DNA of 64,000 nucleotides from Arthrobacter citreus (GTDB taxonomy: Bacteria; Bacillota; Bacilli; Bacillales; Bacillaceae_G). A model generated the notes under the pieces. The model saw nothing but the letters and a program-made list of their open reading frames with translations. It was not told the origin of the DNA and ran no database searches. Position numbers and translations under genes: made by a program. Positions within the stretch are counted from its first letter, which is position 1; the number at the start of each line of letters is the position of its first letter. Positions 17,809-57,735 of this stretch are shown piece after piece. The stretch is from contig CP053688.1 of the NCBI GenBank assembly GCA_013200995.1, positions 4,092,001-4,156,000 of the forward strand, in the 5' to 3' direction.

Positions 17809-17858
17809 CTAGATTAAGATAAAGAGCATGAAATCGATTAGATAGGGGTATGTAGATC

Positions 17859-19394: not shown

Positions 19395-19401
19395 GAAATA
19401 A

Positions 19402-20679
<1,278 letters not shown>

Positions 20680-42522: not shown

Positions 42523-43458
42523 ATGGATCAACAACTAATGAATAATAGATTAATAGTTGGTATGGACGGCGGAGGAACGAAGACGAGAGTAATGGTAAAA
42601 GAAAGTCTAGATGGAGAAACGCTTTTTGACCAAAATTTTGGGATGTCAAATTATAATAACATTGGCGTAGAAGGGCTTAAACCAGTTTTTAGTGAAATAT
42701 ACGAAGCACTATTTGCTTGTTTTGGAGAGCGTTTACAAAATGCCATTCTTGTACTAGGTTCTGCAGGAGTAGACCGACCGAAGGATATTGATATTTACTT
42801 GAATGCGTTAAAAGAAAGTGGTTTTACATGTCAGCTAGAAGTTGTAAATGATGCAGAGATTGCTCTTGTTGGTGGTAATGGAGATCGAAAAGATGCTTTA
42901 ATGATTGCTGGTACAGGTTCGATTGTTATGGGAGTTGACGCAAAAGGAAATACGATTCGCTCAGGTGGCTGGGGTGGCTTAATTAGTGATGAAGGTGGAG
43001 GCTTTCAAATTGGTTTACATGCGATTTCAGCTGTTATGCAAGAGTACGACAAAGTGATTTCCCCAACTTCGTTTACTGATAAATTACTTGGTCATTTTCA
43101 GCTGAATTCTCCAGAAGATTTTATGGATTTATTATATTTGGAGGATACAATACCGGTTGATAAGATAGCTTCGTGTACACCAATTATTTTAGAAGCATGG
43201 GTAAATGGAGACGAGGCAGCTTGTACGATTGTTGAAGGGGAGCTTAATAAGTTAGTGCGATTAGTTGTAGGAATCAGTCGTCAAATGGAATCAGAGAATT
43301 TCCGTCTTTCTGTTGCGGGTAGTTTACTAACTAAGTCGTCTGAATATTTCGATACGTTGAAGAATAAGTTAAGTATCACTTTACCGCAAGTAGAGCTTTC
43401 TGCACCACTTTATGATCCGGTTTTGGGTGCCATTATTATTGGTGAGAAATACAAGTAA
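42523..43458 (+). CDS. BadF-family amino-sugar kinase (GlcNAc/MurNAc)
   Basis: A 311-residue ASKHA-fold kinase of the BadF/BadG/BcrA family, the group of N-acetylglucosamine kinases and of the Clostridium MurK, which phosphorylates both GlcNAc and MurNAc. VGMDGGGTKTRV (12-23) is the phosphate-1 loop, LGSAGVDRP follows, and AGTGSIVMG plus GGWGGLISDEGGGFQIG (about 147-163) form the second phosphate and sugar sites. The last helix (LYDPVLGAIIIG) is typical. It leads a tight four-gene set (gaps of 22-30 bp), so its product probably meets the amino-sugar enzymes encoded next. The start at 42523 has aaagga close before it; the ATG at 42538 is an alternative. Whether GlcNAc or MurNAc is the substrate cannot be read. 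Confidence 0.82.
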   Translation: MDQQLMNNRLIVGMDGGGTKTRVMVKESLDGETLFDQNFGMSNYNNIGVEGLKPVFSEIYEALFACFGERLQNAILVLGSAGVDRPKDIDIYLNALKESGFTCQLEVVNDAEIALVGGNGDRKDALMIAGTGSIVMGVDAKGNTIRSGGWGGLISDEGGGFQIGLHAISAVMQEYDKVISPTSFTDKLLGHFQLNSPEDFMDLLYLEDTIPVDKIASCTPIILEAWVNGDEAACTIVEGELNKLVRLVVGISRQMESENFRLSVAGSLLTKSSEYFDTLKNKLSITLPQVELSAPLYDPVLGAIIIGEKYK

Positions 43459-43488
43459 AGATAAAAATAAAAATATAAGGAATGGCGA

Positions 43489-44622
43489 ATGATGATGCGT
43501 GAAATAGGAATTAGTGTTTATCCCAACTTTTATCCGTTAGAGCAAATCAAAGATTATTTAAAGAAGGCTAGCTCGCTAGGCTTTAAAAAGGTATTTGTTT
43601 CATTGATTTTAAATAATCATGGGTTTGAAGGTGCGCAAAATGTAAATGCAGACACTTGGAATGAACTACTGAATTACTGCAAAGAGCTGAATATGACTGT
43701 TTCAGCTGATATGAATGATGAAGTCTTCAATGAGCTAGGCTGCACTTTAACGGATCTTTCATCGCTACAAAAGATGGGAATTACGAGACTTCGTATTGAT
43801 GGAGGGTTTAAGAGTGAAGAGGTTGCAATTCTTTCAAAAAATCAGCAGGGAATTCAAATAGAAGTTAATGCTTCAATGTCTTCTTCTGATAATAATGATG
43901 GAAACGCCTTGCGAGAGTGTCGCGAGTTTTTAGAGATAATCGAAAGAGAAGGAAACATTGGACAACTAACGGCTTGTCATAACTTTTTTCCTTTGCCAGA
44001 CACAGCGCTGTCTCTTGAGGACATTCGTTCAATTAACAACTTATTTGCATTATTTGATGTGCCTGTTGGAGGGTTTATTGCATCGCAGCTTTCACCTAAA
44101 GATTTACATCATTTAGGTCACGGGGTTTGTACGATTGAAAAGCACCGTTTTTTACCTAGTCATATTGCTATGTTAGAGCTATTCGCAAATGGGTTTAATG
44201 ATGTGTTGATTGGCGATTCGTTTGCAGATCTTTCAGAGCTTATGGAAATGGCAAGATGCTATAAACAAGATTATATAGAAATTCCAGTCGTATTTAATCC
44301 GTATGTTCTGGAGCAAACGAAAGTTAAAATTTTGGAAAAAGTACTTGTTTCAAGAGTCGATCAACCTGCAAATCTCATTCGGGCGACTGATACAAGGGGA
44401 ATCGAAGTGCCTCATTGCTATTGTGCTCCTAGAAGAAAGTATTCGGTTTCAGTTTTAAATAATCGAAGTGCGCAATATGAAGGAGAAGTACAAATTTCAC
44501 TAAAAGATTTGGGGCAATCTGTTGAGCATAATGTGATTGGTTTTGTTCATCCTTTTGCATATGACCTATTACCTTATCTGTTGGCAGGTAAAAATAAATT
44601 TCGATTAGTAGAGTATAAGTAA
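43489..44622 (+). CDS. mupG: MupG-like 6-phospho-N-acetylmuramidase (DUF871)
   Basis: A 377-residue cytosolic protein of the DUF871 family. Its studied member, MupG of Staphylococcus aureus, splits MurNAc-6-phosphate-GlcNAc imported by a PTS during peptidoglycan turnover. The N-terminal part is a TIM-barrel (EIGISVYPNFYPLEQIKDYL; then a strand VFVSLIL; TRLRIDGGF near 106-114; EVNASMS; LTACHNFFPLP near 167-177, a family signature). The C-terminal part is a smaller beta domain (IEVPHCYCAPRRKYSVSVLNN). Three ATGs stand in a row at 43489, 43492 and 43495; the first is best spaced from aagga. Its presence is the main evidence that this cluster handles wall-derived disaccharides. Confidence 0.85.
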   Translation: MMMREIGISVYPNFYPLEQIKDYLKKASSLGFKKVFVSLILNNHGFEGAQNVNADTWNELLNYCKELNMTVSADMNDEVFNELGCTLTDLSSLQKMGITRLRIDGGFKSEEVAILSKNQQGIQIEVNASMSSSDNNDGNALRECREFLEIIEREGNIGQLTACHNFFPLPDTALSLEDIRSINNLFALFDVPVGGFIASQLSPKDLHHLGHGVCTIEKHRFLPSHIAMLELFANGFNDVLIGDSFADLSELMEMARCYKQDYIEIPVVFNPYVLEQTKVKILEKVLVSRVDQPANLIRATDTRGIEVPHCYCAPRRKYSVSVLNNRSAQYEGEVQISLKDLGQSVEHNVIGFVHPFAYDLLPYLLAGKNKFRLVEYK

Positions 44623-44647
44623 AAATCAGTATAGTCGAGGTATTAAA

Positions 44648-46015
44648 ATGGTAAAAAGTGCAGTTATTCTTGCAGCAGGAAAAGGGAGTAAAATGTTTCC
44701 CTTCAACACGGTTCGCTCTAAAACAGTCATAAAAATCGCTGGAAAACCATTAATACGTTATAACATTGAATCTATTTTAGATTTGGGAATAGAAGAAATC
44801 GTAGTTGTTGTTAATGAAGAGTATCAAAGAGAAATTGAAAATGTTTTATCAGATATAAAGAATGTTAAATTTGTGGTCGACCAAACAAATTTAGGAAGCG
44901 CGGAAAGTTTAGTAAAGGGAATTGAGAAACTTTCTACGAACGAAGAATTTTTAGTTCTATACGGAGATACAATCATTGAACAAGAGGATTTAATGAGACT
45001 AGTTAGTTCGAAAAAACCTGCTGTTTTGTTGAAAAAATTAGAAGAGACATCGAGAAATTGGATTGGTGCAAGCCTGGAAAATGGATTTGTTCAGTCGATT
45101 GGTGCTCACTATCGTGGCGACAGCATTACCCATCAATTCGCGGGATTTCGTTTTGACGAAGTTATTTTAGATGAAATCAAAAGAACGCCAGACTATTTTC
45201 CAAATGTAAAAGTAGGCGTAGGTGCTCCAAAAGAACGCTATATTGAAGCTGCTCTTCTGAAATGGATAGAGAAAACAAAATTACAGGCGATTGAATGTAG
45301 TGGCCATTTCTTTGATATTGATAAACCGTGGCATATGTTAGAAGCAAATGAGTTCATGGTGAATTATTTATGTAATGCACTTCAAGAAAACGAGCTAGCA
45401 GAAGGTGCGACGATTTCAAAACAAGCAACCATTCATGGTTATGTAAAGTTGGGTAAGAATTCATCGATTGGTGATCGAGTTGTTATTCACGGTAACTTAA
45501 TTGTAGGTGACAATACAATCATTGATAACGGAGCGATTTTTAATGGCAATGCGGTAATTGGTGAACAAACAGTTATTCGTAATTACTGTATCATTTATGA
45601 TGGTGTTTCAATTGGATCATATTGTATTTTCGATCATTGCGCAGAATTCCTCGGTGGGATGGTAATGGATAAAGTTTATCTATATCACTATGGAGAGTTT
45701 TATGGTGCAATTGGCAGTCATACGGATATCGGGGCTGCAACGGTTTGCGGAACATTACGCTTTGATGACGGAGAAACTGAGCATGTTGTGGGTGGGCGGA
45801 AGGAAGTACCTTTACATTTTTCAAATGCTGCTTATCTTGGTGATTATTGCAGAACTGGCGTTAATACGATTATTATGCCAGGCTGTAAAATTGGTGCTTA
45901 TAGCGTGCTTGGTGCGGGTGCAATTATCGATAAAGATATCGAACAAAACAGTCTTGTTTTTGTAAAGCAAGACCTGGTCATCAAAAAGTGGAATGAAAAG
46001 AAGTACGGCTGGTAA
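44648..46015 (+). CDS. Sugar-1-phosphate nucleotidyltransferase with beta-helix
   Basis: A 455-residue two-domain protein. The N-terminal domain (about 1-235) is a Rossmann-like nucleotidyltransferase: LAAGKGSKMFPFNTVRSK (8-25) is the pyrophosphorylase signature, with Lys where Arg is usual, and LVLYGDT holds the metal Asp. The C-terminal domain (about 255-450) is a left-handed beta-helix of hexapeptide repeats (isoleucine/valine every six residues) ending in an acyltransferase-like stretch. The layout is that of GlmU and of archaeal ST0452-type enzymes, which make UDP-GlcNAc from glucosamine-1-phosphate or GlcNAc-1-phosphate. A housekeeping glmU should exist elsewhere, so this copy is probably dedicated to salvage. 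Sugar specificity is unknown. Confidence 0.78.
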   Translation: MVKSAVILAAGKGSKMFPFNTVRSKTVIKIAGKPLIRYNIESILDLGIEEIVVVVNEEYQREIENVLSDIKNVKFVVDQTNLGSAESLVKGIEKLSTNEEFLVLYGDTIIEQEDLMRLVSSKKPAVLLKKLEETSRNWIGASLENGFVQSIGAHYRGDSITHQFAGFRFDEVILDEIKRTPDYFPNVKVGVGAPKERYIEAALLKWIEKTKLQAIECSGHFFDIDKPWHMLEANEFMVNYLCNALQENELAEGATISKQATIHGYVKLGKNSSIGDRVVIHGNLIVGDNTIIDNGAIFNGNAVIGEQTVIRNYCIIYDGVSIGSYCIFDHCAEFLGGMVMDKVYLYHYGEFYGAIGSHTDIGAATVCGTLRFDDGETEHVVGGRKEVPLHFSNAAYLGDYCRTGVNTIIMPGCKIGAYSVLGAGAIIDKDIEQNSLVFVKQDLVIKKWNEKKYGW

Positions 46016-46037
46016 AATTAATAGAAGAAGGTATAGA

Positions 46038-46757
46038 ATGATGGAAAATTATTATAAATATGTGACGGCAAATCTCGAAAAGCTATATACGACACAAATT
46101 CAAAAAATGGATGAAGCTGCAACATGTATTTTTGAAGCGATTCAAAACGGAGGGCGTTTCCTTGTTACTGGTTCGGGTCACTCACATATGTTTGCAGAAG
46201 AATTTTATGTAAGAGCAGGTGGATTTGCCAAAGTTTCTCCTATTTTACCAAACGAATTCTTTTTACATGATCATCCTTTAAAAAGTACTGTGATTGAACG
46301 TGTAGAAGCTTATGCAAAAGTAATTTTTGATTTATACAAAATTACCTCAAAGGACGTACTTGTCATTGCTTCAAACTCGGGAAGAAATGGAATGACAGTG
46401 GAACTTGCAAAAATGGCACAGGAATGTGGTGCAAAGGTTATTTCGTTTACAAATCCTGATCATCCGAAAGACTCAAAATCAAGACATAGTAGTGGGAAGT
46501 ACCTTTGTGACTTTAGTGATATAGTCGTTAATAATTGTACTGGCCCTGGAGATGCTGCTTTTTATGTAGAAGAAGCAAAAACAGGAATGGGAGCAACTTC
46601 AACAATAGCAGGAGCATTTGTAGCTCAGACGATGTCCATAATGCTTGCAAAAAAATATCATCAAGCTGGACTTGTACCGCCAGTATTTAAGAGCTCTAAT
46701 GTTGATGGTGGAGATGAATGGAATAAAGAGCTGTTTGCAAAGTACTATGGAGTGTAA
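46038..46757 (+). CDS. SIS-domain sugar-phosphate protein
   Basis: A 239-residue protein with one SIS (sugar isomerase) domain. FLVTGSGHSHMFAEEF (41-56) and VLVIASNSGRNGMTVELA (about 109-126) are the phosphate-binding Ser/Thr loops. It is close in size and pattern to the uncharacterised PRK02947 group, and shorter than MurQ (about 300), the MurNAc-6-phosphate lactyl etherase that also has a SIS fold. I would not call it MurQ. In this context an aldose-ketose isomerase or etherase acting on an amino-sugar phosphate is likely. The ATG at 46038 or 46041 follows agaagg; an upstream frame runs into the preceding gene and is ignored. Confidence 0.75.
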   Translation: MMENYYKYVTANLEKLYTTQIQKMDEAATCIFEAIQNGGRFLVTGSGHSHMFAEEFYVRAGGFAKVSPILPNEFFLHDHPLKSTVIERVEAYAKVIFDLYKITSKDVLVIASNSGRNGMTVELAKMAQECGAKVISFTNPDHPKDSKSRHSSGKYLCDFSDIVVNNCTGPGDAAFYVEEAKTGMGATSTIAGAFVAQTMSIMLAKKYHQAGLVPPVFKSSNVDGGDEWNKELFAKYYGV

Positions 46758-47246
46758 TGTTAAGAGCTAAGTCTTAATGTAATTTACATTTTGTATCCAA
46801 AAATAAAATGAAATGAATTCGATTAGCTTGTTTAAAATCATATCGATCATCTATTGCGTTTCCGATTTATGGAGCGCTTTTTTTTATGCACATAGGTTTA
46901 AAGGAGGAGTATCGTATTACGGAATTTCTAATACGTCGTTAAGTAATACTTAAAACAATTAAATAGTGAATCCCTTTATCCAAGCGCTTTTATAAGTAAT
47001 ATGCATTTTATTTGTATACAAAATTAATTAAACTGATTGGCGTTAGTAAAAAGTACCTCTATTTACCCGTAGGTCTATAGTCGTATTATAGCAAAGACGG
47101 TACATATGTCACTTTGAACATATGAACTAGACGTATTTATATTTAAATTGCGAACTATTTTGGAAAAATTCAAACTGTTAAATAGATTTGATGAAACGTA
47201 AACTAAAATTACTAGATTAGCAGGATCTAGGGTGGTGAGGTAATGT
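46758..47246. other. Intergenic stretch between the two sugar blocks
   Basis: About 490 bp with no gene but several symmetric words: ttaaga/tcttaa near 46760-46777, a core aagcgctt (46982-46989, CcpA-like centre), the perfect palindrome tttgtatacaaa (47011-47022), and an inverted repeat catatgt/acatatg (47103-47124). It probably holds the promoter of the regulator and operator sites for more than one protein. Confidence 0.55.
47011..47022. promoter_or_regulatory. Candidate operator palindrome
   Basis: tttgtatacaaa is a perfect 12-bp palindrome about 225 bp before the regulator start. Sugar-responsive GntR-family operators of bacilli (gluconate, trehalose) contain related ttgtatacaa words. 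No GntR regulator is encoded in the window, so the binder would be encoded elsewhere, or this is a chance palindrome. Confidence 0.4.
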
Positions 47247-49187
47247 ATGCGAAGAGATTTAATATTGCAATATTTGTATCAAAAAGGAAAGTCACTTTCG
47301 TCACAGGAACTTGAATCAGAATTTGCAATTTCAAATCGGACTTTACGAAACGAGTTGAAAGAATTAAATGTAATCGGAGAAAAGTCTGGATTTGTGATTC
47401 AAAAAAAACGCGGTGAAGGCTATTTACTTCATGTAGAAAACCAAGATCTGGTACAAAACTATATGAAAGAAATCGACGGTGCACTTGCTCCTGACTTACC
47501 TCGTGTTCGTGTGAACAATATTATTATGCTTCTGCTTCAAACGACAGAATTTCAAACGATTGATCTGTTTGCTGATAGTCTAATGATCAGTAGATCCACA
47601 GTTTTTAGCGACATGATTGAAGTTGAAAAGCAAGTCAGAATTTTTGATTTAAAAGTAGAAACAAAATCGCGCTATGGTGTTCGTCTATTAGGTGACGAAA
47701 CAAATTTTAGAAGAGCATTTTCTTACTTCTTAAGTCAAAAGGAAACAGGGCTTTTAAAGAAATCAAATTATCAAACTTTTGAGAAGGCGTTTCCTTTTGA
47801 GGAAATTCGGGCTGTCTTGAATGAAGAAGTTCAAAATAACCAATTGAAAATAAGTTATTTTGCACTTGAAAACATTTTAGTTCATATCCAAGTACTTTCG
47901 TTTCGAGTAACTCAACACAACTTTATTTTGCCTAATCAAGAGAAGAAGTTAGATTTATCTCTAATCAAGCCATCGTTTATGAATATTGCTAAAAGAATTT
48001 GTGAGATTCTTTCTGAGCTTTACCACGTCGTACTACCACAGAGTGAGATTATTTACTTAGCTGCTCACATAAGTGGTAAATCGAGTGTAGATGAAATTGA
48101 GGAAGAAGAAAAGAATGACTTAAAACAAAAACTAATGAGTTGTTTGGAAAAATTGGATCAAACATTCTTTACGCAGTTTTCAGGTGATCAGCAGCTTTTG
48201 AATACGCTTATCATGCATATGTATCCGTTGTTAAGAAGGTTATATTTCAATTTAAAGCTTACAAATCCATTGATAAATGATGTATACAGCAGGTATTCCG
48301 ATGTGTTCATGATTGCTTTAAATTTTTCTGAAATGATAAAGGAAATATGGGGATTTGAACTTTCCAGCGATGAAATGGGCTATATAACAATGCATCTAGC
48401 AGCCCATGTGGAAAGAGAGAAACAAAAACAATTAAGTTCCTATAAGAAAATTTTACTTTCGTACGGATTAGGTGCAGGCTCAGCGGACTTAATGAAAATG
48501 AAACTAGAGTCACTATTTCAAGGAGCGAGTATTGATGTTGTTGTGTATAGCGAGCTCCAATCAGTGAATCTAGAAAACTATGATTTATTAGTATCATCGA
48601 CTGCAATACCTTTTGATCATATTTCAATTCCGTATATTCAAGTAGCACCAATCCTAACAGAAACGGATGTCCAGAGAATCCGACGCAAGCTTACAAGGTA
48701 TCCAGCTAATAAAGTTAAAGAAGATGTACCAACACTCTTATCACTATTTCATACAGATTTGTTTTCGATTGAAGAAAGTAAAGAGTCATTCGACTACAAA
48801 GCTTTTATAAAAGAAAAGGCAAATAGAGTTGTTGAACTAGGGTATGCATCACCTGACTACCCTGATTTAGTAGTCGACCGAGAAGAAAAAATATCAACGA
48901 TCCTGCAAAACGGAATTGCCGCACCACACGCTTTAAAAATGGTTGCGATTCAAGACTCAATCAGTGTCGTGATATTTAAAAATCCGCCGACAATTGTCGG
49001 AAAAGTCGTACAAATTCTATTTTTAATAAACCTACGCGCTGGAGACTTATTTTTACACAAAGAGTTAAGTCGATTATTTTTACATTTGATGGATCATCCT
49101 GAGGCGAAGCAGAGAGTATTAAAGTCAAATAATTTCAACGATTTTCAGTACGAAATTTCAAAAATTTTATTTCAGTATGGTTCCTAA
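47247..49187 (+). CDS. LicR-like PTS-controlled transcription activator
   Basis: A 646-residue DNA-binding regulator of the LicR/MtlR layout: N-terminal helix-turn-helix units (about 1-140; SSQELESEFAISNRTLRNELK is one), two PRD domains with their phosphorylatable histidines (LVHIQVLSF and YLAAHISG; IMHMYPLL and YITMHLAAH), an EIIB-like domain (about 400-490), and a fructose-type EIIA domain (about 500-640) with the conserved His in IAAPHALKM. In the EIIB-like domain the usual Cys of the VCSSGIG-type loop is missing; the equivalent segment reads LLSYGLGAG, with Ser405 at that place. The ATG at 47247 is preceded by ggtgagg. It lies just upstream of the secreted protein and PTS genes and probably activates them. 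Confidence 0.86.
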   Translation: MRRDLILQYLYQKGKSLSSQELESEFAISNRTLRNELKELNVIGEKSGFVIQKKRGEGYLLHVENQDLVQNYMKEIDGALAPDLPRVRVNNIIMLLLQTTEFQTIDLFADSLMISRSTVFSDMIEVEKQVRIFDLKVETKSRYGVRLLGDETNFRRAFSYFLSQKETGLLKKSNYQTFEKAFPFEEIRAVLNEEVQNNQLKISYFALENILVHIQVLSFRVTQHNFILPNQEKKLDLSLIKPSFMNIAKRICEILSELYHVVLPQSEIIYLAAHISGKSSVDEIEEEEKNDLKQKLMSCLEKLDQTFFTQFSGDQQLLNTLIMHMYPLLRRLYFNLKLTNPLINDVYSRYSDVFMIALNFSEMIKEIWGFELSSDEMGYITMHLAAHVEREKQKQLSSYKKILLSYGLGAGSADLMKMKLESLFQGASIDVVVYSELQSVNLENYDLLVSSTAIPFDHISIPYIQVAPILTETDVQRIRRKLTRYPANKVKEDVPTLLSLFHTDLFSIEESKESFDYKAFIKEKANRVVELGYASPDYPDLVVDREEKISTILQNGIAAPHALKMVAIQDSISVVIFKNPPTIVGKVVQILFLINLRAGDLFLHKELSRLFLHLMDHPEAKQRVLKSNNFNDFQYEISKILFQYGS

Positions 49188-49311
49188 TGATAAGGAATGC
49201 ACTGAAATAAGTGGGGGAACGTTCGGTCTGTCAGTATTTTTAAATAGAGAGATAAGATTTTAGAAGACAATATAGTAATCAAAAAAAGATAAATTATTTG
49301 GAGGAAGATAA

Positions 49312-52300
49312 ATGAAAAGAAATAAATGGCTTTTTGGTAGAGCTCTTCCAGCTTCAGTATTAGCAGCATCAATGTTTACATCACCTATTAATGGTGTTAT
49401 TGCAAAAGCTGCACCGGCTATTGCAACTCAATCAGTAGCGCCAACTTCAACTGGCACTAAGATTTTTATGAATACTACACAAATCACTCATGCGAAACCA
49501 AGTGGTTTAGATACAACTAAACCAGTAAAATGGACAACTTCTGATCCTTATGTTGCATATGTCGATACAATCGGTAATGCAAAGGGAGATTTTAGCGGGA
49601 AAATTCTAGGAGTATCTGGTGGTTCAGCAATTATCACTGGTACTGGAGTAGATGGAAGTGGTAATCCTGCAACAGTGAACATTACGGTTTCGGTAATTGA
49701 GACACAATCACATACTAATCTAGAAAAGCTTGTTTACTACTACAAAGCGGGCGACGCAAATATTCCAGCTGCTCTTGCTTCTACAAGTTTGAAGACAAGT
49801 CACATTCCAACTGCACCATCTGGAACTAAATTCCCTTCTAAAAGCTATGTTGGCTATGTTAATGGGGAAAATGGTGTGAAATGGTTAATTTCAAAAGATA
49901 TTTTAATTAGGTCTAACGGTAATGTTAACTTTGGTGATGAAAAAGATCATCCAATAACGACTGGTATTGTATCAGATGCAATTACATTATATGACCCGAA
50001 CTTAGCACCGGCTGATCAAATTCAATATTTGCAAGGTGGAAGATATATTCCGCAAACTGGTGAAAATTCAGGATCTGGAATTGATAAAAACGGTAATCCA
50101 ACTCAATTTAACGCTAAAGAGGTCATTACGAACATTATGCCTGATGGTAATAATGGACTTTGGATTTTAGGTGCAAAAGGAAATGCTACTCATATTGTAA
50201 GAAAGCAAATGTCACTAATGGGTAAATCATTAGTTCAGGAAGAAATTTCTAGAAACTATGCAGACCGATTTGGATTCCAATCTGGATCTATGAGCTTTTC
50301 TGACCAAAATAATATGATTAAAGCACTTATGACTGCCGATAAAGATGCGATAACTTCAGTTTCTGATACAGATAATGATGGATTATGGACTACAATGTAC
50401 GCTTCAGGTGAAATTTGGAGATACAACTACATGAAAGAAAACTTTGGTGAAAAAGATGCTAGAACAATCGACGCAAAAGCTTCTGCTGTTCGTGCTGTTG
50501 AAGCGATCGTAACACTAGGTTATGTTTCTGGAATGCAGTTAAAAGTACCTTCAAAAGACAATGTAAATGACGTTGTATATATCGTTAACTCACTTGGTGG
50601 AAAAGTAACGACGATTGATGAAGGCAAGGCTTGGCTTGCAACAAATGAAGGAAAACCTGTTTTCGTTGATCAAGATGGAAATTATACATTAACTGATACA
50701 GGAAAACCTGCTTCTGCTGGTTTCTTTGCAAGATCATTCAAAGTAGAAGGTAGTAATAATGGTTCTACAACTACAGAAAGTAAGTCATGGGATCAAGCTT
50801 GGTTACAAAAAAGCGCTGGAACTACTACAGATGTAGATGGAAAAGAAGTTAAATATTCTGTCCCAGGTAAAATCAATGGGGGAACTGCAGGCATTAAAGC
50901 ATATGACACTGTTGCAGTACCATCACGTTTAACAAATATTGTAAGAGATCAAAACCCTGGTCTAGATGATGCTACAAAAGCATTAGACTCAGATAAAGTC
51001 TATTACAAAGCAACAACGTCTACAGATGAATTAGTAGGTCATTACTTCACATTAGATCTTGCTTATAACACATTTAAAGATAGCGATCCTGAGTTAGCGG
51101 CTCTTGTGAAAAATGATTTAATTAACCATACAAATGCGATGGTTTTAAACAACTATTACCAAGTAAGTGTGACTGGAGAAAACCCAATTGAATCTCGTTT
51201 TAATGGAGTTGCTCCTGGAAATGGATTAAATGCTCCTTCAGCTCCGACTAAATGGGCAAATTTAAATCCGGAATTCCTTGATGGTGTATCAAATGCTTGG
51301 GGTAGAAATGATTATGAAGATGGTCCATTAAATGCAACATTAGCATTACAAATGCTTGTAGCTGCAAGAGATATGGGTAGCTATACGCCTGAAGAAAAAG
51401 CTGCACTTGAAAACCAAGGCGTTGCAGTAATTGCTCCACTTGATTTTGCAAACGAATACAAAGTGATGAATGGTGTGAAAGCGTCTACAAAGTCAGAACA
51501 CAATGATTACAAAACAAGATATCCAAAGTCATATAACTCAACTTCACTAATGGATATGTCATTGCAATACCACTCTAGATACTTTGGTATTTCGGCTCAT
51601 AACGGAGATGATATCGGTGTAAGTGGTGTTTCTTACGAAGCATACATGAACTATTCTGATGAAGAAGAAGCAGCGTTATCATACTACACGTTATCTCACC
51701 ATGCTGAAAAATCAACTTCTCAAGGTATCTTACAAGGCATGAACCAATGGTGGTTTAACGAAAAAAGAGAGAAAAATCCATTTATGTCAACTTTCTACGC
51801 AGCTTCTTTAGGTGCAATGAAAGATAAAGGATTTAGTATCGCAAACTCAACTGTTGACCTTGCAGGTTCAACATGGCAAATGACGCGTATTCCAAACAAC
51901 TTCGTAAACTGGGATGTTCTTTCTGCCAATAGAAATGACGTAACGCATGTTACGCCAGATTTAATGGTTGACCAACTTATTCCACGTGATGAAGTAATGA
52001 TGTCTAAATACAATACAAACATTTTCGGAACGATGGATCGAAGAACAATTGATTCAGGTAACAGCACATCAATGGAATCTTCAACTGTAACATCTATGCC
52101 TTATTGGTTAACGCAAAACCCTGAGGATGCTGCTTATGTAGACGATTTAGGTTCAAAAGTTACAGCACCTGTAAATAACGGTACAGAAAGCTTAGACTAC
52201 CCAACTAACGTAGCAGCTATGAATCCTAACGCTAAATATAATGAGGATACACATACATTCACAATTAATGTAGGTGAATCTGTTAAGTTGGATGCTAAAG

Positions 52301-53610
52301 CGACAGGCTATACTAAAAACGTAGCATGGCTAACGAATGCTTGGGATCTAGCAGGATATAGCAATGGAACACCATCGCAAATCAATGCTGATTCAAATGT
52401 TTCTTCAGTAATCGACTTAAGAAATTTAGCGGCTTACGATGAAGTAGGAAATGTAGATGCTACTGGAATTAGTGTTGATGGAGAGCATTATGGTGCATAC
52501 GCAACTGCTTTAAAACCAGGTACAGTGACTGTTACTGGCTATACGATTGATGGGTTCTTTAGAACACCTAAAAAAGTAACGTACACAATTAAAGTTGTTG
52601 ATCCAATGACATCAGGAGAAAAAATTGCTCCAGCTGAACTTGATAAAAATTCTTTCGCATATCCAACTTGGTTAAAAAATGCAATGGCTGAATCAGGATT
52701 AAATGAAGAAGGAAATAAATATGTAGAAGTTAGTTACGAGTCATCTTCACCAGACGACGTTACTATCGATAAAGATGGAAAAGTTACGTACAAAACAGAC
52801 AAGCCAGCTAATATCACTGCAACAGTAGTATATTCTGGTATGACATTAGATGGTGATCCTGCTTTTGCAAATGATAGCCATGTGATGACTTACGAACGCA
52901 CAGTATCTAAAAATGCAAAACAGACAGTTGCATTTGATTCTCAAGGTGGATCTTCAGTAGATTCACAGATTGTTAGTTACAATGAATCGATTACATCTCC
53001 AAAACCAACAAAAACAGGCTATACATTCGTTGGCTGGTATAAAGATTTAGCAGGTACACAAGCATGGAACTTTGCAACTGATCAAGTAACAGCATCTACT
53101 ACCCTTTATGCTAAGTGGAGTATTAACAAATACACAGCTTCATTTAATAGTAATGGTGGATCTGCAGTTACTGCTAAAACAGTAAACTATAATTCTGTTG
53201 TAACAAAACCAGCTAATCCAACAAGAAAAGGATTTGTCTTCGCTGGATGGTACAAAGATGCTGCACTTAAAACAGCATGGAACTTTACGACTGATCAAGT
53301 AACAGCAAATACAACACTTTACGCAAAATGGACTGTTGCTACGCCGACAGGTTTAAAAGCAGCAAAAGCAAGTACAACTTCAGTTAAAGTAAACTGGGCT
53401 TCAGTAAGCGGTGTTTCTGGATATGAAATTGTTCGCGCAACGAAGAGTGACTTCTCTGATAAAGTGACAAAAACAACTACTTCAGGAACATATACTGCAA
53501 CAGGACTAGTTAAAGGTAAAACTTATTACTTTAAAGTTCGTGCTTATACTCTAGTTGGTAAAGTGAAGGTTTACGGAAATTACTCAACAGTTGTTAAATA
53601 CAAGCTATAA
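49312..53610 (+). CDS. Large secreted protein, putative glycan-active
   Basis: A 1432-residue exported protein of unclear function. Signal peptide about 1-32 (ends near IAKAAPA), then a Big-like beta domain (about 45-130). A large core (about 130-950) is mostly helical in look, with conserved-looking blocks: DTDNDGLWTTMYASGEIWRY, ASAGFFARSF, YYKATTSTDELVGHYFTLDL, GPLNATLALQMLVAARD, and MNQWWFNEKREKNPF. This series recalls (alpha/alpha)-toroid proteins found in secreted carbohydrate-active enzymes, though I cannot name a family. After a second Big-like stretch come two InlB-type (Listeria-Bacteroides) repeats (about 1202-1270 and 1271-1340) and a C-terminal FN3-like domain (1341-1432). No LPxTG motif. 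It sits between a PTS regulator and the PTS genes, so it probably acts on the polymer whose products the PTS imports. Confidence 0.7.
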   Translation: MKRNKWLFGRALPASVLAASMFTSPINGVIAKAAPAIATQSVAPTSTGTKIFMNTTQITHAKPSGLDTTKPVKWTTSDPYVAYVDTIGNAKGDFSGKILGVSGGSAIITGTGVDGSGNPATVNITVSVIETQSHTNLEKLVYYYKAGDANIPAALASTSLKTSHIPTAPSGTKFPSKSYVGYVNGENGVKWLISKDILIRSNGNVNFGDEKDHPITTGIVSDAITLYDPNLAPADQIQYLQGGRYIPQTGENSGSGIDKNGNPTQFNAKEVITNIMPDGNNGLWILGAKGNATHIVRKQMSLMGKSLVQEEISRNYADRFGFQSGSMSFSDQNNMIKALMTADKDAITSVSDTDNDGLWTTMYASGEIWRYNYMKENFGEKDARTIDAKASAVRAVEAIVTLGYVSGMQLKVPSKDNVNDVVYIVNSLGGKVTTIDEGKAWLATNEGKPVFVDQDGNYTLTDTGKPASAGFFARSFKVEGSNNGSTTTESKSWDQAWLQKSAGTTTDVDGKEVKYSVPGKINGGTAGIKAYDTVAVPSRLTNIVRDQNPGLDDATKALDSDKVYYKATTSTDELVGHYFTLDLAYNTFKDSDPELAALVKNDLINHTNAMVLNNYYQVSVTGENPIESRFNGVAPGNGLNAPSAPTKWANLNPEFLDGVSNAWGRNDYEDGPLNATLALQMLVAARDMGSYTPEEKAALENQGVAVIAPLDFANEYKVMNGVKASTKSEHNDYKTRYPKSYNSTSLMDMSLQYHSRYFGISAHNGDDIGVSGVSYEAYMNYSDEEEAALSYYTLSHHAEKSTSQGILQGMNQWWFNEKREKNPFMSTFYAASLGAMKDKGFSIANSTVDLAGSTWQMTRIPNNFVNWDVLSANRNDVTHVTPDLMVDQLIPRDEVMMSKYNTNIFGTMDRRTIDSGNSTSMESSTVTSMPYWLTQNPEDAAYVDDLGSKVTAPVNNGTESLDYPTNVAAMNPNAKYNEDTHTFTINVGESVKLDAKATGYTKNVAWLTNAWDLAGYSNGTPSQINADSNVSSVIDLRNLAAYDEVGNVDATGISVDGEHYGAYATALKPGTVTVTGYTIDGFFRTPKKVTYTIKVVDPMTSGEKIAPAELDKNSFAYPTWLKNAMAESGLNEEGNKYVEVSYESSSPDDVTIDKDGKVTYKTDKPANITATVVYSGMTLDGDPAFANDSHVMTYERTVSKNAKQTVAFDSQGGSSVDSQIVSYNESITSPKPTKTGYTFVGWYKDLAGTQAWNFATDQVTASTTLYAKWSINKYTASFNSNGGSAVTAKTVNYNSVVTKPANPTRKGFVFAGWYKDAALKTAWNFTTDQVTANTTLYAKWTVATPTGLKAAKASTTSVKVNWASVSGVSGYEIVRATKSDFSDKVTKTTTSGTYTATGLVKGKTYYFKVRAYTLVGKVKVYGNYSTVVKYKL

Positions 53611-53648
53611 ATTGAAAGTAAAAAGCTAATTATTATTGAATAAATTCC

Positions 53649-53693
53649 AAGGATCTTAGTAGAAAAGGAATTTCCTAATTTGCTAAGATCCTT
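53649..53693 (+). other. Hairpin between the secreted protein and EIIC
   Basis: aaggatcttag (53649-53659) pairs perfectly with ctaagatcctt (53683-53693), and aggaa/ttcct pairs inside. It has no T tail and lies just before the EIIC ribosome site (agagaggtga), so it looks like an mRNA processing or stability element rather than a terminator. Confidence 0.65.
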
Positions 53694-53715
53694 AATCCTC
53701 AGAGAGGTGAGAAAA

Positions 53716-55020
53716 ATGAAAAGTAATTTTTTTGAAAGAAAATTCTTACCGATTGCTTCTAAAATAGGCAATCAAAGACACTTACTAGCTTTACGTGACG
53801 GTATTATGTTTGCTATGCCACTAATGATTATTGGTTCGTTTTTCATTATCGTAGCTTGGCTAGAAGCAGATTGGTATCAAAACTTTATGGCAAAAGTATT
53901 TGGTGAAAATTGGAATGCTTTCGGAGACATCGTATATAACGGTTCAATGGGGATTATCGCCTTAGTAGCAGTATTTGGTGTTGCATACTCGTTAGCTAGT
54001 AGCTATAAGGTCGATAAAAAGAATATAGACGGAGTTCCAGCTGGGGTTTTAGCGTTAGCAAGTTATTTAATTGTTAACATTATGAGCACTTTTAAAGATG
54101 GTAAGGAAACCGTATCGGCTTGGTCACCTGATCTTTTTGGTGCACAATACTTGTTCGTTGGATTAATCATTGCAATTATTACTGCTGAAATTTATCGCTA
54201 CTTCTTACAAAAGAAGATCATTATTACATTACCAGACACGGTACCGCCATCGGTTTCTCGTTCATTTACAGCCCTAATTCCTGGTTTCGTGATTATCCTT
54301 TTCTTCTTACTAGTTAGATATGGATTTAGTCATACAGGTTGGGGAGATTTTGCAACTTTTGTTCATAAAGTTGTGACACGACCATTTACGATTTTAGGTT
54401 CAACTTATATTGGTACGCTTGTTGCGTGTTTAATGGAACATATTTTATGGAGCTTTGGTATCCACGGTTCATCAATCATTACATCGGTTATGGAACCAAT
54501 TTGGATACAAAATGCTGACGCTAACTTAGCAGCAGTAAAAGCTGGTAAAGCACTACCACATATCATTACGTATACATTCTATGAAAATGGAATCTGGATG
54601 GGTGGATCAGGTGCTACTTTACCGGTAGCAATCTATATGACGTTTTTAGCGAAGTCAAAACTACTTAAGAAGGTAGGACGTCTAGCAATTGGACCTTCGA
54701 TATTTAACGTTAATGAACCAATTATGTTTGGTGTTCCAATCGTTTTAAATCCATTTTTAATCGTTCCTTATATTCTTGCACCAGTAGCAGTGTTAACGGT
54801 TACGTATTTTGGTACAGTGATGGGGATTTTCCCTCATACAACAGGAACAATTATTCCTTGGACAACCCCGTACTTCATAAGCGGATATCTTATGACGGGT
54901 GGAAAAATTATGGGTGTAGTTATGCAATTAGTCGCTTTTGCGGTGGCATCATGTATTTGGTTCCCATTCATACGATTGTGGGATAAGAAAAATTTAGAAT
55001 TGGAGAAAGCTAAAAATTAA
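53716..55020 (+). CDS. PTS EIIC, lactose/cellobiose family
   Basis: A 434-residue membrane permease (EIIC) of the lactose-cellobiose-chitobiose class. It has about ten hydrophobic segments (for example GIMFAMPLMIIGSFFIIVAW near 30-50) and the family site HGSSIITSVMEP around 255, followed by the FNVNEPIMFGVPIVLNP loop (about 335-351), which carries the substrate-binding Glu. The ATG at 53716 follows agagaggtga; the TTG 12 codons earlier overlaps the hairpin arm and is unlikely. It would import and phosphorylate a beta-linked disaccharide together with the EIIB and EIIA genes nearby. Confidence 0.92.
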   Translation: MKSNFFERKFLPIASKIGNQRHLLALRDGIMFAMPLMIIGSFFIIVAWLEADWYQNFMAKVFGENWNAFGDIVYNGSMGIIALVAVFGVAYSLASSYKVDKKNIDGVPAGVLALASYLIVNIMSTFKDGKETVSAWSPDLFGAQYLFVGLIIAIITAEIYRYFLQKKIIITLPDTVPPSVSRSFTALIPGFVIILFFLLVRYGFSHTGWGDFATFVHKVVTRPFTILGSTYIGTLVACLMEHILWSFGIHGSSIITSVMEPIWIQNADANLAAVKAGKALPHIITYTFYENGIWMGGSGATLPVAIYMTFLAKSKLLKKVGRLAIGPSIFNVNEPIMFGVPIVLNPFLIVPYILAPVAVLTVTYFGTVMGIFPHTTGTIIPWTTPYFISGYLMTGGKIMGVVMQLVAFAVASCIWFPFIRLWDKKNLELEKAKN

Positions 55021-55026
55021 TTTTAA

Positions 55027-55094
55027 ACCGATCTCCTTTCGGGCGTCGGTGTCATCCTGTTCATGAATGGCACCCAAATCATTTCGATGATTTG
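55027..55094 (+). other. Three tandem hairpins after EIIC
   Basis: Three stems in a row: accga/tcggt (55027-55050), ggtgtcat/atggcacc (55048-55074), and caaatcat/atgatttg with a ttcg tetraloop (55075-55094). The first two share three bases, so they may be alternatives. No T run follows. They separate the EIIC reading frame from the RDD gene and may set their relative mRNA levels. Confidence 0.6.
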
Positions 55095-55139
55095 ATAGGT
55101 CTTTAAAAAACGGATTATTGATTAGAAGGGACTACAATT

Positions 55140-55655
55140 ATGGAAAATCGACAAAAAATTATTACTTCGTTTCGATTAAAAAGAATCGGTGCCTTTATCA
55201 TTGATGCAATAATTGTTTCAATTATCTTGTCAATTGTATATCGCATAACAGGACTGCCAAACTTTCCAGGCGTTCTAGGAAATATGATTGAACTTCAGAA
55301 ATCAGCAGCTAGTCAAGATGCAGCTGTAAAGGTAATGGCTCTTTTTAATGAAGCATTTCTCCAATCACTTATAATCTATTTTTGTTATGACGTAATAACA
55401 ACTTTATTATTAAGAGGATCAACAATTGGAAAGTTGATCTTCCGATTAAAGTTAACACGTATTAATAACAAAAAAGGAAAACTACCTTATATATTACTAG
55501 TGATTGTTAGAAGTTTCTTTAAATTTTTGACGATGTTCATTTTTCAAGGTTTCCCATTCTTTTTATCCGTTATTAGCATGTTTGCTAATAAAAAATCTTT
55601 AGCCGTACACGATCGAATCGGACGCTTTGTCGTTATCAATAAAAACGAATTATAA
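55140..55655 (+). CDS. RDD family membrane protein
   Basis: A 171-residue membrane protein with three to four hydrophobic segments. It starts with an FRLKRIGAFIIDAIIVSIIL helix bearing the Arg and Asp that name the RDD family (R14/R15 region and D22), then a second helix near 75-92 (FLQSLIIYFCYDVITTLLL), the GSTIGKLIFRLKLTRI loop, and a C-terminal VHDRIGRFVVI. RDD proteins are small membrane proteins of mostly unknown role; some are linked to transport. Placement between EIIC and EIIB of a PTS is unusual. The ATG at 55140 is preceded by agaaggga. Confidence 0.82.
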   Translation: MENRQKIITSFRLKRIGAFIIDAIIVSIILSIVYRITGLPNFPGVLGNMIELQKSAASQDAAVKVMALFNEAFLQSLIIYFCYDVITTLLLRGSTIGKLIFRLKLTRINNKKGKLPYILLVIVRSFFKFLTMFIFQGFPFFLSVISMFANKKSLAVHDRIGRFVVINKNEL

Positions 55656-55683
55656 AAACTTACAAAAGAAAGAGGAAATTATC

Positions 55684-55992
55684 ATGAATATCTTACTTTG
55701 CTGTGCTGCTGGAATGTCAACTAGTCTAATCGTTTCAAAAATGGAAAAAGTTGCTGAATCAAACGGAATTACAGCACGTATATGGGCAGTTTCTGAATCA
55801 GTTGTTCGTTCAGAAATCGATGAGGCTGATGTGTTATTACTAGGACCACAAGTACGATTCCTTTTAGAAGAAATGGAAGAAATCTGCGGAGAGAAAAATA
55901 TTCCGGTTGAAGTAATTAATATGATGAATTATGGCATGTGTGATGGTGAAGCAATCTTAGAACAAGCCATCGAATTAATTAAAAACAAGTAG
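55684..55992 (+). CDS. PTS EIIB, lactose/cellobiose family
   Basis: A 102-residue soluble EIIB protein. NILLCCAAGMSTSLIVSKME (2-21) is the phosphocysteine loop of the lactose/cellobiose class; Cys7 in CAAGMSTS is the phosphorylated residue. LLLGPQVRFLLEEM and the C-terminal helix follow the LicB/CelA pattern. I chose the ATG at 55684 (agaggaaa upstream); a longer frame starting at 55627 lies inside the RDD gene. It passes phosphate from EIIA to the sugar in EIIC. Confidence 0.94.
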   Translation: MNILLCCAAGMSTSLIVSKMEKVAESNGITARIWAVSESVVRSEIDEADVLLLGPQVRFLLEEMEEICGEKNIPVEVINMMNYGMCDGEAILEQAIELIKNK

Positions 55993-56107
55993 TCTTAATT
56001 ATTGAGAAGTGACTCTTCTTCTCTTTATTCAAGCAATTTACGATGATTGCCTTAAACGAGAGGTATACAATAAAAAATTTTAATAAAAAAGAGAGGAGGT
56101 CATTTTT

Positions 56108-56419
56108 ATGATTAAAAATGAAACGGAAATTTTCACACTGATCCTACATGGTGGTAACGGTCGAAGTGCAGCAATGGAAGCTATTAAAGCAGCAAAGAAA
56201 AAAGACTTCGTATTAGCACGTAAGAAATTGCAAGAAGCGGGTGATGCTTTAAATGAAGCACATCATATTCAAACGACCCTTATTCAATCTGAGATTGGTG
56301 GTACTCCAACGGAGATTTCACTTTTAATGATTCACGCACAAGATCACTTAATGAATGCAATGACCGTAAAAGACATGGCAAAAGAATTCGTTGACTTGTA
56401 TGAAGGGGGGGGGAAGTAA
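56108..56419 (+). CDS. PTS EIIA, lactose/cellobiose family
   Basis: A 103-residue helical EIIA protein that takes phosphate from HPr on a histidine, probably His76 in [29 protein letters not shown] (12-30) and the heptad-like helices fit the trimeric LicA/CelC family. agaggagg precedes the ATG. The final codons are glycines encoded by a run of nine G residues (56405-56413) that also forms part of the ribosome site of the next gene; the stop overlaps the next start (TAATG). Confidence 0.94.
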
Positions 56420-57735
56420 TGTCTAAGAAACTTAAAATCGTTACAATAGGTGGGGGTTCAAGCTATACGCCAGAATTGGTTGAAGGCATTATTAACCGTT
56501 ATGAACAAATACCAGTATCAGAGCTTTGGCTTGTTGACGTAGAGGAAGGTCGTGAAAAATTAGAAACAGTTGGTGCTTTAGCAAAACGCATGGTCAAAAA
56601 GGCCGGAGTTCCAATGGAAGTTCATCTTTCTTATAATCGTCGTGAGGCTTTGAAAGATGCTGATTTTGTTACAACACAGCTTCGCGTTGGACAACTAGCT
56701 GCTCGTGCTCTCGATGAAAGAATTCCGCTTAAACATGGTGTAATTGGTCAAGAGACAAATGGGGCAGGCGGATTGTTTAAAGCACTACGTACAATTCCAG
56801 TTATTTTAGATATTTGTAATGAAGTTGAAGAGCTATGCCCGAATGCTTGGATACTAAACTTTACAAACCCTGCAGGCATGGTGACTGAGGCGGCATTAAG
56901 ATATTCAAATATTAAAAGATTTATAGGACTTTGTAATATACCGATCGGAATGGAAATGGGTATTGCAAAACTTTTAAACGTAGATCACTCACGCGTACGA
57001 ATTGATTTTGCAGGTCTAAATCATATGGTATTTGGAGTAGAGGTTTATTTAGACGGAGTTAGTGTAAAAGAGCAAGTACTTGAAATGATTATGGACCCGG
57101 CTAATGCAAGCTTTGTAAAAAATATAGATGCAGAAGAGTGGGCACCTGAATTCCTTAAAGCAATTAATGTCATTCCTTGTTCATACCATCACTACTACTA
57201 CAAAACATCTGAGATGCTAGAAAGAGCATTAAAAGACTTTGAGTCGAACGAAACACGCGCAGAAGTCGTGCAAAAAATTGAAGCATCTCTTTTTGAAAAG
57301 TACAAAGATGAAGCGCTAGATGTAAAACCACCGGAGTTAGAAGAACGTGGTGGAGCTTACTATTCTGATGCGGCATGCCGATTAATCTCATCGATTTATA
57401 ATGATACAAGAGATATTCAACCATTGAATACGGTGAATAAAGGAGCAATTTCAGGCTTACCATATGATAGTGCTGTAGAAGTAAGTTGTGTGATCACGAA
57501 AGATGGACCGGTTCCATTAACAATGGGAGAATTACCAGTTCCTGTTCGAGGCTTAATTCAAACGATTAAATCATTTGAACAAACGTCAATTGAGGCTGCT
57601 ATAGAAGGTAATCGTGAAAAAGCAATTCTTGCTTTAACGATTAATCCACTTGTAGCGAATGATAAACTTGCTGTAGCAATAGTAGATGAGATGCTTGAAG
57701 CACATAAACAATATTTACCTAAGTTCTTTAAATAA
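56419..57735 (+). CDS. GH4 6-phospho-beta-glucosidase-like
   Basis: A 438-residue glycoside hydrolase of family 4, which splits 6-phosphorylated glycosides by an NAD- and Mn-dependent redox mechanism. VTIGGGSSYTPELVEG (8-23) is the NAD-binding loop, GQETNGAGGLFKALR (about 112-126) shapes the sugar site, NFTNPAG (about 149-155) follows, and LCNIPIG (about 173-179) holds the metal-binding Cys of the CN-x-P motif, with a metal His in GLNHMVFG (about 201-208). It matches the LicH/CelF branch. It would cut the disaccharide phosphate imported by the adjacent PTS. Last gene of block B. Confidence 0.93.
   Translation: MSKKLKIVTIGGGSSYTPELVEGIINRYEQIPVSELWLVDVEEGREKLETVGALAKRMVKKAGVPMEVHLSYNRREALKDADFVTTQLRVGQLAARALDERIPLKHGVIGQETNGAGGLFKALRTIPVILDICNEVEELCPNAWILNFTNPAGMVTEAALRYSNIKRFIGLCNIPIGMEMGIAKLLNVDHSRVRIDFAGLNHMVFGVEVYLDGVSVKEQVLEMIMDPANASFVKNIDAEEWAPEFLKAINVIPCSYHHYYYKTSEMLERALKDFESNETRAEVVQKIEASLFEKYKDEALDVKPPELEERGGAYYSDAACRLISSIYNDTRDIQPLNTVNKGAISGLPYDSAVEVSCVITKDGPVPLTMGELPVPVRGLIQTIKSFEQTSIEAAIEGNREKAILALTINPLVANDKLAVAIVDEMLEAHKQYLPKFFK

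What the first reader, a model, noticed from the sequence alone, without database searches (positions are those of the whole stretch)
42523..57735. Candidate extracellular-glycan and wall-sugar salvage island
Eleven plus-strand genes with no unrelated gene between them: amino-sugar kinase, MupG-like muramidase, nucleotidyltransferase-beta-helix, SIS protein, LicR-like regulator, 1432-residue secreted protein, EIIC, RDD protein, EIIB, EIIA and GH4. The MupG, PTS and GH4 parts are each known; this combination with a dedicated nucleotidyltransferase and an unclassified large exported protein is not one I know. One reading: the exported protein cuts a beta-linked polymer, the PTS imports the disaccharide, GH4 or MupG splits it, and the kinase and nucleotidyltransferase return the sugar to UDP-sugar. 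The link between the two blocks is by adjacency only.
Basis: partly seen in the sequence, partly recalled or inferred. Interest (0 to 1): 0.75.

Follow-up and report, generated by a model that had tools for sequence, protein, structure and literature searches.

The report
Amino-sugar uptake island with exported toroid
An 11-gene block in a relative of Bacillus looks like a dedicated machine for taking in and processing a cell-wall- or chitin-like amino sugar, and its unknown exported protein belongs to a family that often lies beside such genes in other bacteria, which makes it a candidate for a new kind of sugar-polymer enzyme.

Summary
Eleven plus-strand genes fill 42523-57735, with the same content and order in 11 further same-genus (Gottfriedia-type) genomes and 4 Neobacillus-type loci. 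The sub-blocks are linked by more than adjacency: in 4 of 4 Neobacillus-type genomes one upstream element precedes both, its only two exact copies there. A distant same-phylum genome keeps NT-SIS-GH4-PTS together. Among 245 Paenibacillus-type family genomes, all 10 with this nucleotidyltransferase (NT) also encode the exported protein's family, 9 of 10 within 10 kb; 8 of 10 have SIS and a GH84 beta-N-acetylglucosaminidase nearby, with ABC importers, not a PTS. So PTS loci carry MupG + GH4, and ABC loci carry GH84 or GH4. This supports a beta-linked amino-sugar substrate. The 1432-residue protein has a predicted (alpha/alpha)6 toroid of no assigned family with invariant acidic residues; it may be a new depolymerase, but no activity is shown. 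The same genome's AnmK-MupG-PTS-GH4-kinase-MurQ operon is the ordinary peptidoglycan-sugar route. New variant of a known kind; interest 0.6.

The parts
42523..43458 (+). BadF/BcrA-type sugar kinase (MurK/NagK-like)
   Evidence: PF01869 90.7 bits; NagK equivalog 84.8, below its cut-off of 370; best solved relative 8zo3, MurNAc/GlcNAc kinase, E 1.6e-45
43489..44622 (+). MupG-like 6-phospho-glycosidase (GH170, DUF871)
   Evidence: MupG_N 190.6 bits, MupG_C 50.5 bits; solved relatives 1x7f, 2p0o; one of 5 paralogues in the genome, the others 28-31% identical
44648..46015 (+). Sugar-1-phosphate nucleotidyltransferase-like protein with left-handed beta-helix (NT)
   Evidence: NTP_transferase + Hexapep; nearest solved 2ggo E 5.6e-29 and 5z09; Lys for Arg in the signature loop
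45993..46757 (+). SIS-domain phosphosugar protein, NagS-like (UPF0309)
   Evidence: PRK02947 268.7 bits > 135; 9eol (NagS, SCO4393) E 1.8e-35 and 3cvj E 1.1e-61; equivalents of H53, S54, R64, E94, S119, S121, D179, N228 kept, S91 is Thr (numbering counted by hand)
46856..46877 (+). Terminator-like hairpin after sub-block A
   Evidence: such sites overall at shuffle level; hairpin seen by eye in 11 of 11 aligned sequences of two groups
47160..47185 (+). 26-bp conserved element 87 bp before the regulator gene; also before the kinase gene in Neobacillus-type loci
   Evidence: 15 of 15 loci before the regulator; second copy before the kinase in 4 of 4 Neobacillus-type loci and 0 of 11 Gottfriedia-type loci incl. 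window; genome-wide exact counts
47247..49187 (+). PRD/Mga/EIIA-type transcriptional regulator
   Evidence: HTH_11, Mga, PRD (2 stretches), PTS_EIIA_2
49312..53610 (+). 1432-aa exported protein: signal-like N-terminus, conserved core to about residue 1200, variable C-terminal InlB-type repeats and fn3
   Evidence: C-terminal repeats absent in some orthologues; signal sequence judged by eye
50059..51987 (+). Stretch modelled alone (residues 250-892), predicted (alpha/alpha)6 toroid with invariant D354, R474, D572, E573, R874, D876
   Evidence: model pLDDT 83.3, pTM 0.87; fold comparison; invariant in 33 of 33 aligned sequences
53680..55020 (+). PTS EIIC, lactose/cellobiose family
   Evidence: TIGR00359 and TIGR00410 457.3 bits, above both cut-offs
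55140..55655 (+). RDD-family membrane protein
   Evidence: PF06271 54.6 bits; in 15 of 15 clusters tested for all 11 genes
55627..55992 (+). PTS EIIB, lactose/cellobiose family
   Evidence: PF02302 84.8 bits
56108..56419 (+). PTS EIIA, lactose/cellobiose family
   Evidence: PF02255 128.2 bits
56419..57735 (+). GH4 6-phospho-beta-glycosidase
   Evidence: PF02056 and PF11975; 5c3m and 1s6y, named 6-phospho-beta-glucosidases, E 5.3e-199 and 1.4e-198

Best explanation
The island is an uptake and processing system for a beta-linked amino-sugar oligosaccharide (GlcNAc-, GlcN- or MurNAc-containing) from an extracellular or wall polymer. Proposed steps: the exported toroid protein cuts or holds the polymer outside (inferred from fold, invariant acidic residues and gene company); EIIABC imports a disaccharide and phosphorylates its non-reducing sugar (family knowledge); MupG and GH4 split 6-phospho-disaccharides inside, probably two different ones (family knowledge); the MurK-like kinase phosphorylates the released free amino sugar (family knowledge); the SIS protein, in the place MurQ takes in the ordinary operon, converts an amino-sugar 6-phosphate (inferred); NT acts on a derived sugar phosphate or senses it (unknown). 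The PRD regulator controls the PTS unit and, in Neobacillus-type relatives, perhaps both units through the shared element (inferred). The toroid, often with kinase, SIS and NT, is a portable set: with the PTS it comes with MupG and GH4, with ABC importers it comes with GH84 or GH4.
For: 11-gene order in 11 of 11 other same-genus loci and 4 Neobacillus-type loci. Element core: exactly 2 exact genome-wide matches, both in the cluster, in 4 of 4 Neobacillus-type genomes (positions). A same-phylum genome has NT-SIS-DUF7916-GH4-IIA-IIB-IIC contiguous (L180). NT and toroid: 7 of 22 congeners of G304 have NT at E below 1e-190, the same 7 have toroid, none of the other 15 has either at those levels; 10 of 245 family genomes have NT, 33 have toroid, all 10 inside the 33 (hypergeometric 5e-10, not corrected for phylogeny). 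Around those 10 NTs: toroid within 10 kb in 9, SIS in 8, GH84 in 8, BadF kinase in 7 (GH84 confirmed by Pfam in the 3 scanned, 319-335 bits). Same-genome paralogous operon AnmK-MupG-IIB-IIC-GH4 (64% identical)-IIA-BadF kinase-MurQ-MurR-like. NagB directly after GH4 in L056 (310.3 > 236.9).
Against: No substrate or activity is shown for any member. EIIC passes the cellobiose equivalog cut-off (457.3 against 434.45) and GH4 is nearest to 6-phospho-beta-glucosidases, which fits plain beta-glucosides. No MurQ, NagA or NagB lies in the block itself. A conserved hairpin separates the sub-blocks, and the shared element is missing before the kinase in Gottfriedia-type loci, the window's included. NT occurs without toroid: none found genome-wide in G704 and G648; it is unlinked in G942. 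Toroid occurs without NT in 23 of 33 genomes, so NT and SIS are not obligatory partners.
Confidence: 0.62

Rival explanations
1. A plain beta-glucoside (cellobiose/lichenan) PTS operon of the lic type beside an unrelated amino-sugar operon; the two are neighbours by chance.
For: EIIC passes the cellobiose equivalog and GH4 is nearest to 6-phospho-beta-glucosidases; a hairpin conserved in 11 of 11 aligned sequences separates the units.
Against: Adjacency kept in two groups with different flanks, shared element in Neobacillus-type genomes, NT-SIS-GH4-PTS contiguous in a distant genome, a 64% identical GH4 inside an AnmK/MurQ operon of the same genome, GH4 or GH84 near the toroid family in ABC-type loci.
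Confidence: 0.12
2. The exported toroid protein is a surface binding or sensing protein, not an enzyme; other secreted enzymes release the oligosaccharide.
Against: 18 positions invariant in 33 sequences down to 23% identity, including D354, D572, E573, R474, R874 and D876, and a fold shared with many GH and PL families, look like a catalytic site.
Confidence: 0.25
3. Kinase and NT regenerate a UDP-amino sugar (salvage into cell-wall precursors), in the way AmgK and MurU do in Pseudomonas (recalled).
For: NT has the NTP_transferase domain and keeps the YGD and DxDKPW motifs; kinase, SIS and NT occur together around 6 of 10 Paenibacillus-type NTs.
Against: Signature Arg replaced by Lys in 26 of 26 readable sequences; MurU 51.9 against 250, GlmU 96.0 against 366.85; the MurK described in PMC10465942 makes the 6-phosphate and no mutase lies in the block.
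Confidence: 0.25

Closest known systems
mupG-murQ-murP-murR operon of Staphylococcus aureus (PMC6262408; abstract and passages seen)
   Same: PTS import of a disaccharide with phosphorylation, then a GH170 6-phospho-glycosidase
   Different: Here no MurQ and no MurR but a PRD regulator, a lactose/cellobiose-type PTS, plus GH4, kinase, NT, NagS-like SIS and an exported toroid protein; an AnmK/MupG/MurQ set is elsewhere in the genome (L045)
chb cluster of Lacticaseibacillus paracasei for N,N'-diacetylchitobiose (PMC12791066; abstract and passages seen)
   Same: Cellobiose-type PTS plus GH170 glycosidase for an amino disaccharide
   Different: No DUF3284 gene among the 11; extra GH4, kinase, SIS, NT and exported protein
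NagS (SCO4393) GlcNAc-6P dehydratase (PMC12680351; abstract and passages seen)
   Same: SIS protein of the same family; 8 of the 9 residues mutated in the paper are kept
   Different: The paper reports homologues of 25.7-35.7% identity (Clostridium, Paenibacillus, Acidothermus) with no or negligible GlcNAc-6P dehydratase activity, so the function of this branch is open
MurK-type amino-sugar kinases (8zo3 by sequence; Tannerella forsythia MurK, PMC10465942, two passages seen)
   Same: BadF-type amino-sugar kinase; 8zo3 match E 1.6e-45
   Different: Substrate here unknown; no MurQ neighbour in the block
ST0452-type dual sugar-1-phosphate nucleotidylyltransferase (2ggo, 5z09; the name ST0452 is recalled)
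   Same: NTase plus left-handed beta-helix architecture
   Different: Lys for Arg in the signature loop; the family's own LRFDD motif and YGW end
Alpha/alpha-toroid glycoside hydrolases and lyases (GH9, GH76, GH105, PL17 and others)
   Same: Predicted fold of residues 250-892
   Different: No sequence-family match in the core and no Foldseek hit at E below 0.001

Membership tests
MupG-type peptidoglycan-sugar salvage operon | GH170 (MupG) gene beside a PTS | tested here: met
   MupG_N/MupG_C; PTS IIC, IIB, IIA in the same block
MupG-type peptidoglycan-sugar salvage operon | MurQ etherase in the operon | tested here: not met
   the SIS protein scores 22.9 against the cut-off of 302 for TIGR00274; a MurQ is in another operon of the genome, L045 (390.4 bits)
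NagS GlcNAc-6P dehydratase | H53, R64, E94 and D179 equivalents, inactive when mutated in NagS | tested here: met
   alignment to 9eol; mutants in PMC12680351 passages
NagS GlcNAc-6P dehydratase | Dehydratase activity on GlcNAc-6P | not testable with these tools
   homologues of 25.7-35.7% identity lacked or nearly lacked it
UDP-sugar pyrophosphorylase (GlmU, MurU) | Equivalog-level match | tested here: not met
   GlmU TIGR01173 96.0 against 366.85, MurU 51.9 against 250, archaeal GlmU-like 184.6 against 292.1
UDP-sugar pyrophosphorylase (GlmU, MurU) | Arg in the signature loop | tested here: not met
   Lys aligned to the Arg of 2ggo; Lys in 26 of 27 loci, the 27th (L205) not readable there; in L180 an Arg stands one position earlier
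Lactose/cellobiose PTS | IIC, IIB and IIA of that family | tested here: met
   TIGR00410 457.3 bits, PF02302, PF02255
GH4 6-phospho-beta-glycosidase | GH4 domains and close match to solved proteins named 6-phospho-beta-glucosidase | tested here: met
   CNIP motif read by eye, its link to beta-specificity is recalled
Known (alpha/alpha)6 GH or PL family (for the toroid) | Sequence-family membership | tested here: not met
   Pfam and NCBIfam name nothing in the core of the window protein at E 0.001, nor in P0032 (NCBIfam); Pfam finds only propeller or unrelated weak matches and one GDPD fusion in the relatives scanned
Known (alpha/alpha)6 GH or PL family (for the toroid) | Specific structural match | tested here: inconclusive
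chb-type chitobiose operon | Growth on or hydrolysis of chitobiose | not testable with these tools
   none

The most novel reading that the evidence does not exclude
The exported toroid protein founds a new family of polysaccharide-cleaving enzymes acting on an extracellular beta-linked amino-sugar polymer, and kinase-SIS-NT is a new conserved processing triad for its product, used with a PTS branch (6-phospho-glycosidases GH170 and GH4) or an ABC branch (GH84 or GH4). The fixed Lys-for-Arg change would make NT either a nucleotidyltransferase of altered specificity or a metabolite sensor.
Probability: 0.35. Interest if true: 0.75.

Novelty: new variant of a known kind. Interest (0 to 1): 0.6.

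Why it matters
It gives an unannotated exported protein family a testable role through its company (GH84, GH4, amino-sugar kinase, NagS-like SIS); it gives NagS-like SIS proteins outside Streptomycetaceae, three of which were shown in print to be no or nearly no GlcNAc-6P dehydratases (PMC12680351), a concrete pathway context; and it shows an importer swap (PTS or ABC) that comes with a swap of the intracellular glycosidase.

Tried and rejected

Literature: among the papers listed by searches (8 to 20 rows each, not all hits) I saw none, by title or start of abstract, on this cluster, the toroid family or the kinase-SIS-NT set; only an open-licence library was searched. The link of the GH4 CNIP/CNVP motif to beta-specificity was not found and is recalled. 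That Lys at the signature Arg position occurs in non-catalytic large subunits of plant ADP-glucose pyrophosphorylase is recalled and untested.

Selection told: of the 23 toroid genomes without NT I examined 11, plus the unlinked toroid of G942, as L206-L217. Of these 12 loci 9 have GH4 (L212, L214 and L216 do not), 10 have ABC sugar-transport matches, 5 a BadF kinase, 12 an SLH-companion match (in L216 in the same ORF as the toroid); none shows a PTS match. Around the 10 NTs, L203 (G834) and L205 (G744) show no kinase in the stretch fetched, G319 shows no SIS or GH84, G942 none of the partners. All 22 genomes also have weak NT-fold matches (best 1e-13 to 1e-18) to other nucleotidyltransferases, which I did not count as NT. 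At phylum level NT is found in 3 of 398 genomes including the window's own, at E 1e-40 or better. That searches drew the same 245 genomes is judged from the handles listed. Group names (Gottfriedia-type, Neobacillus-type, Paenibacillus-type) are inferred from record titles; two of the four Neobacillus-type records are titled Bacillus sp.


Full report
Observation. Eleven plus-strand ORFs lie at 42523-57735 exactly as described. Domain scans give a BadF-type kinase, MupG_N/MupG_C, NTP_transferase plus hexapeptide helix, SIS_2, an HTH/PRD/Mga/EIIA regulator, a 1432-residue protein recognised only in its C-terminal InlB-type repeats and fn3, lactose/cellobiose EIIC, RDD, EIIB and EIIA, and GH4. 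The window is in a 5.47-Mb genome whose nearest named relatives are Gottfriedia and unclassified Bacillus sp..

Conservation. The 11 genes stand in the same order in 11 of 11 further same-genus loci; one of 13 same-genus genomes, the window's included, has no MupG match. The C-terminal repeats are missing in several orthologues; the conserved part is about residues 40-1200.

Link between the two sub-blocks. A terminator-like hairpin follows the SIS gene (46856-46877). Such sites are at shuffle level in the region (7 against 7.8), but this one is seen by eye in 11 of 11 aligned sequences from both groups, so there are probably two transcription units. A 26-bp element stands 84-87 bp before the regulator in 15 of 15 loci; a second copy stands before the kinase gene in 4 of 4 Neobacillus-type loci and in 0 of 11 Gottfriedia-type loci, the window included. 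Its 18-base core has exactly 2 exact matches in each of 4 Neobacillus-type genomes, both in this cluster. In 12 cluster-bearing Gottfriedia-type genomes it has 1 exact match, in the cluster, except G002 with a second elsewhere; G004, without the cluster, has none; the reversed control has no exact match in the 10 genomes. In a distant same-phylum genome (G704, L180) NT, SIS, a DUF7916 protein, GH4, IIA, IIB and IIC are contiguous, with a MurQ-like SIS protein (judged by eye; Pfam gives GKRP_SIS) and a glucosamine-6-phosphate isomerase-family gene nearby; no toroid is found in that genome. The link is therefore more than adjacency.

The portable set. In Paenibacillus-type genomes the exported protein's relatives carry SLH domains or sit beside an SLH companion in the loci examined. 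Among 22 congeners of G304, NT orthologues (E below 1e-190) occur in 7 genomes and toroid matches in the same 7, with no toroid in the other 15. Among 245 family genomes, NT occurs in 10 and toroid in 33, all 10 within the 33 (hypergeometric 5e-10, phylogeny not corrected). Around those 10, toroid is within 10 kb in 9 (G942 is the exception), SIS in 8, GH84 in 8 and a BadF kinase in 7. A common order is kinase, SIS, GH84, solute-binding protein, two permeases, NT, toroid, in several genomes with oxidoreductase and GNAT-like genes in between. GH84 was confirmed by Pfam in the 3 proteins scanned (319-335 bits). G319 instead has a kinase and a GH4 52% identical to the window's. In 12 further toroid loci, 9 have a GH4 49-55% identical to the window's, 10 have ABC sugar-transport matches and 5 a BadF kinase; one (L217) has a glucosamine-6-phosphate isomerase-family gene after GH4. 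Thus the PTS loci carry the 6-phospho-glycosidases MupG and GH4, while the ABC loci carry GH84 or GH4. That a kinase beside GH4 stands in for the PTS phosphorylation is an inference. The GH84 partner is the strongest evidence that the substrate is a beta-linked amino-sugar oligosaccharide.

Same-genome comparison. The genome has five MupG paralogues. One lies in an operon AnmK (588 against 435 bits), MupG, IIB, IIC, GH4 64% identical to the window's, IIA, BadF kinase, MurQ (390.4 against 302) and a MurR/RpiR-type regulator below its cut-offs: the ordinary peptidoglycan-sugar route. The island has a NagS-like SIS protein in place of MurQ, a PRD regulator in place of MurR, and the extra NT and exported protein. 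One Neobacillus-type locus has NagB right after GH4 (310.3 against 236.9).

The nucleotidyltransferase. It keeps the YGD and DxDKPW motifs but has Lys where 2ggo has Arg in the signature loop, in 26 of 26 readable sequences of 27 loci. It is below the cut-offs of the pyrophosphorylase equivalogs shown. Conversion to a UDP-sugar is therefore a guess.

The SIS protein. Against NagS it keeps the equivalents of the four residues whose Ala mutants were inactive (H53, R64, E94, D179) and of S54, S119, S121 and N228; S91 is Thr. The NagS paper reports that homologues at 25.7-35.7% identity, Clostridium and Paenibacillus ones among them, had no or negligible GlcNAc-6P dehydratase activity, so this branch has an open function that the present context helps to frame.

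Verdict. An amino-sugar uptake and processing island, confirmed as a unit in two groups and related to a gene set seen in a third (Paenibacillus-type) and in part in one further genome (G704). Import, phosphorylation and intracellular cleavage rest on family knowledge; the extracellular cut and the steps at SIS and NT are inference.

Noticed in passing
window 37472-41923 (-) and 58342-63156 (+): Two very large exported subtilase-like ORFs flank the island; the second ends in repeated GW..YYF cell-wall-binding-type repeats (by eye).
   Followed up: no
window 1-4000: GC rises to about 0.51 against about 0.36 for most of the window, and spurious antisense ORFs recur in L044; an rRNA operon may lie here (not tested).
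   Followed up: no
window 7824-20679: Looks like a purine biosynthesis operon, judged by eye from ORF starts.
   Followed up: no
L045 (G000:C1:4466000-4484000) 7265-16444: AnmK-MupG-PTS-GH4-kinase-MurQ-MurR-like operon in the same genome, one of five MupG loci.
   Followed up: yes
P0036: A distant toroid relative carries a C-terminal glycerophosphodiester phosphodiesterase domain, which may point to a glycerol-phosphate polymer.
   Followed up: no
L179 (G648) 10012-11406: An NT homologue (42%) stands among genes that match none of the module's partners; no toroid in that genome.
   Followed up: partly
L180 (G704) 11539-12486 and 4286-5278: DUF7916 gene inside the NT-SIS-GH4-PTS cluster; a second ORF with a similar start lies nearby; function unknown.
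   Followed up: no
L186 11949-15560: A second exported toroid-like ORF (1203 aa) beside another exported ORF close to the kinase gene.
   Followed up: no
G308, G309, G310 genome-wide: Matches to the 18-base element with 2 mismatches exceed the reversed control in Neobacillus-type genomes (10-15 against 1-4).
   Followed up: no
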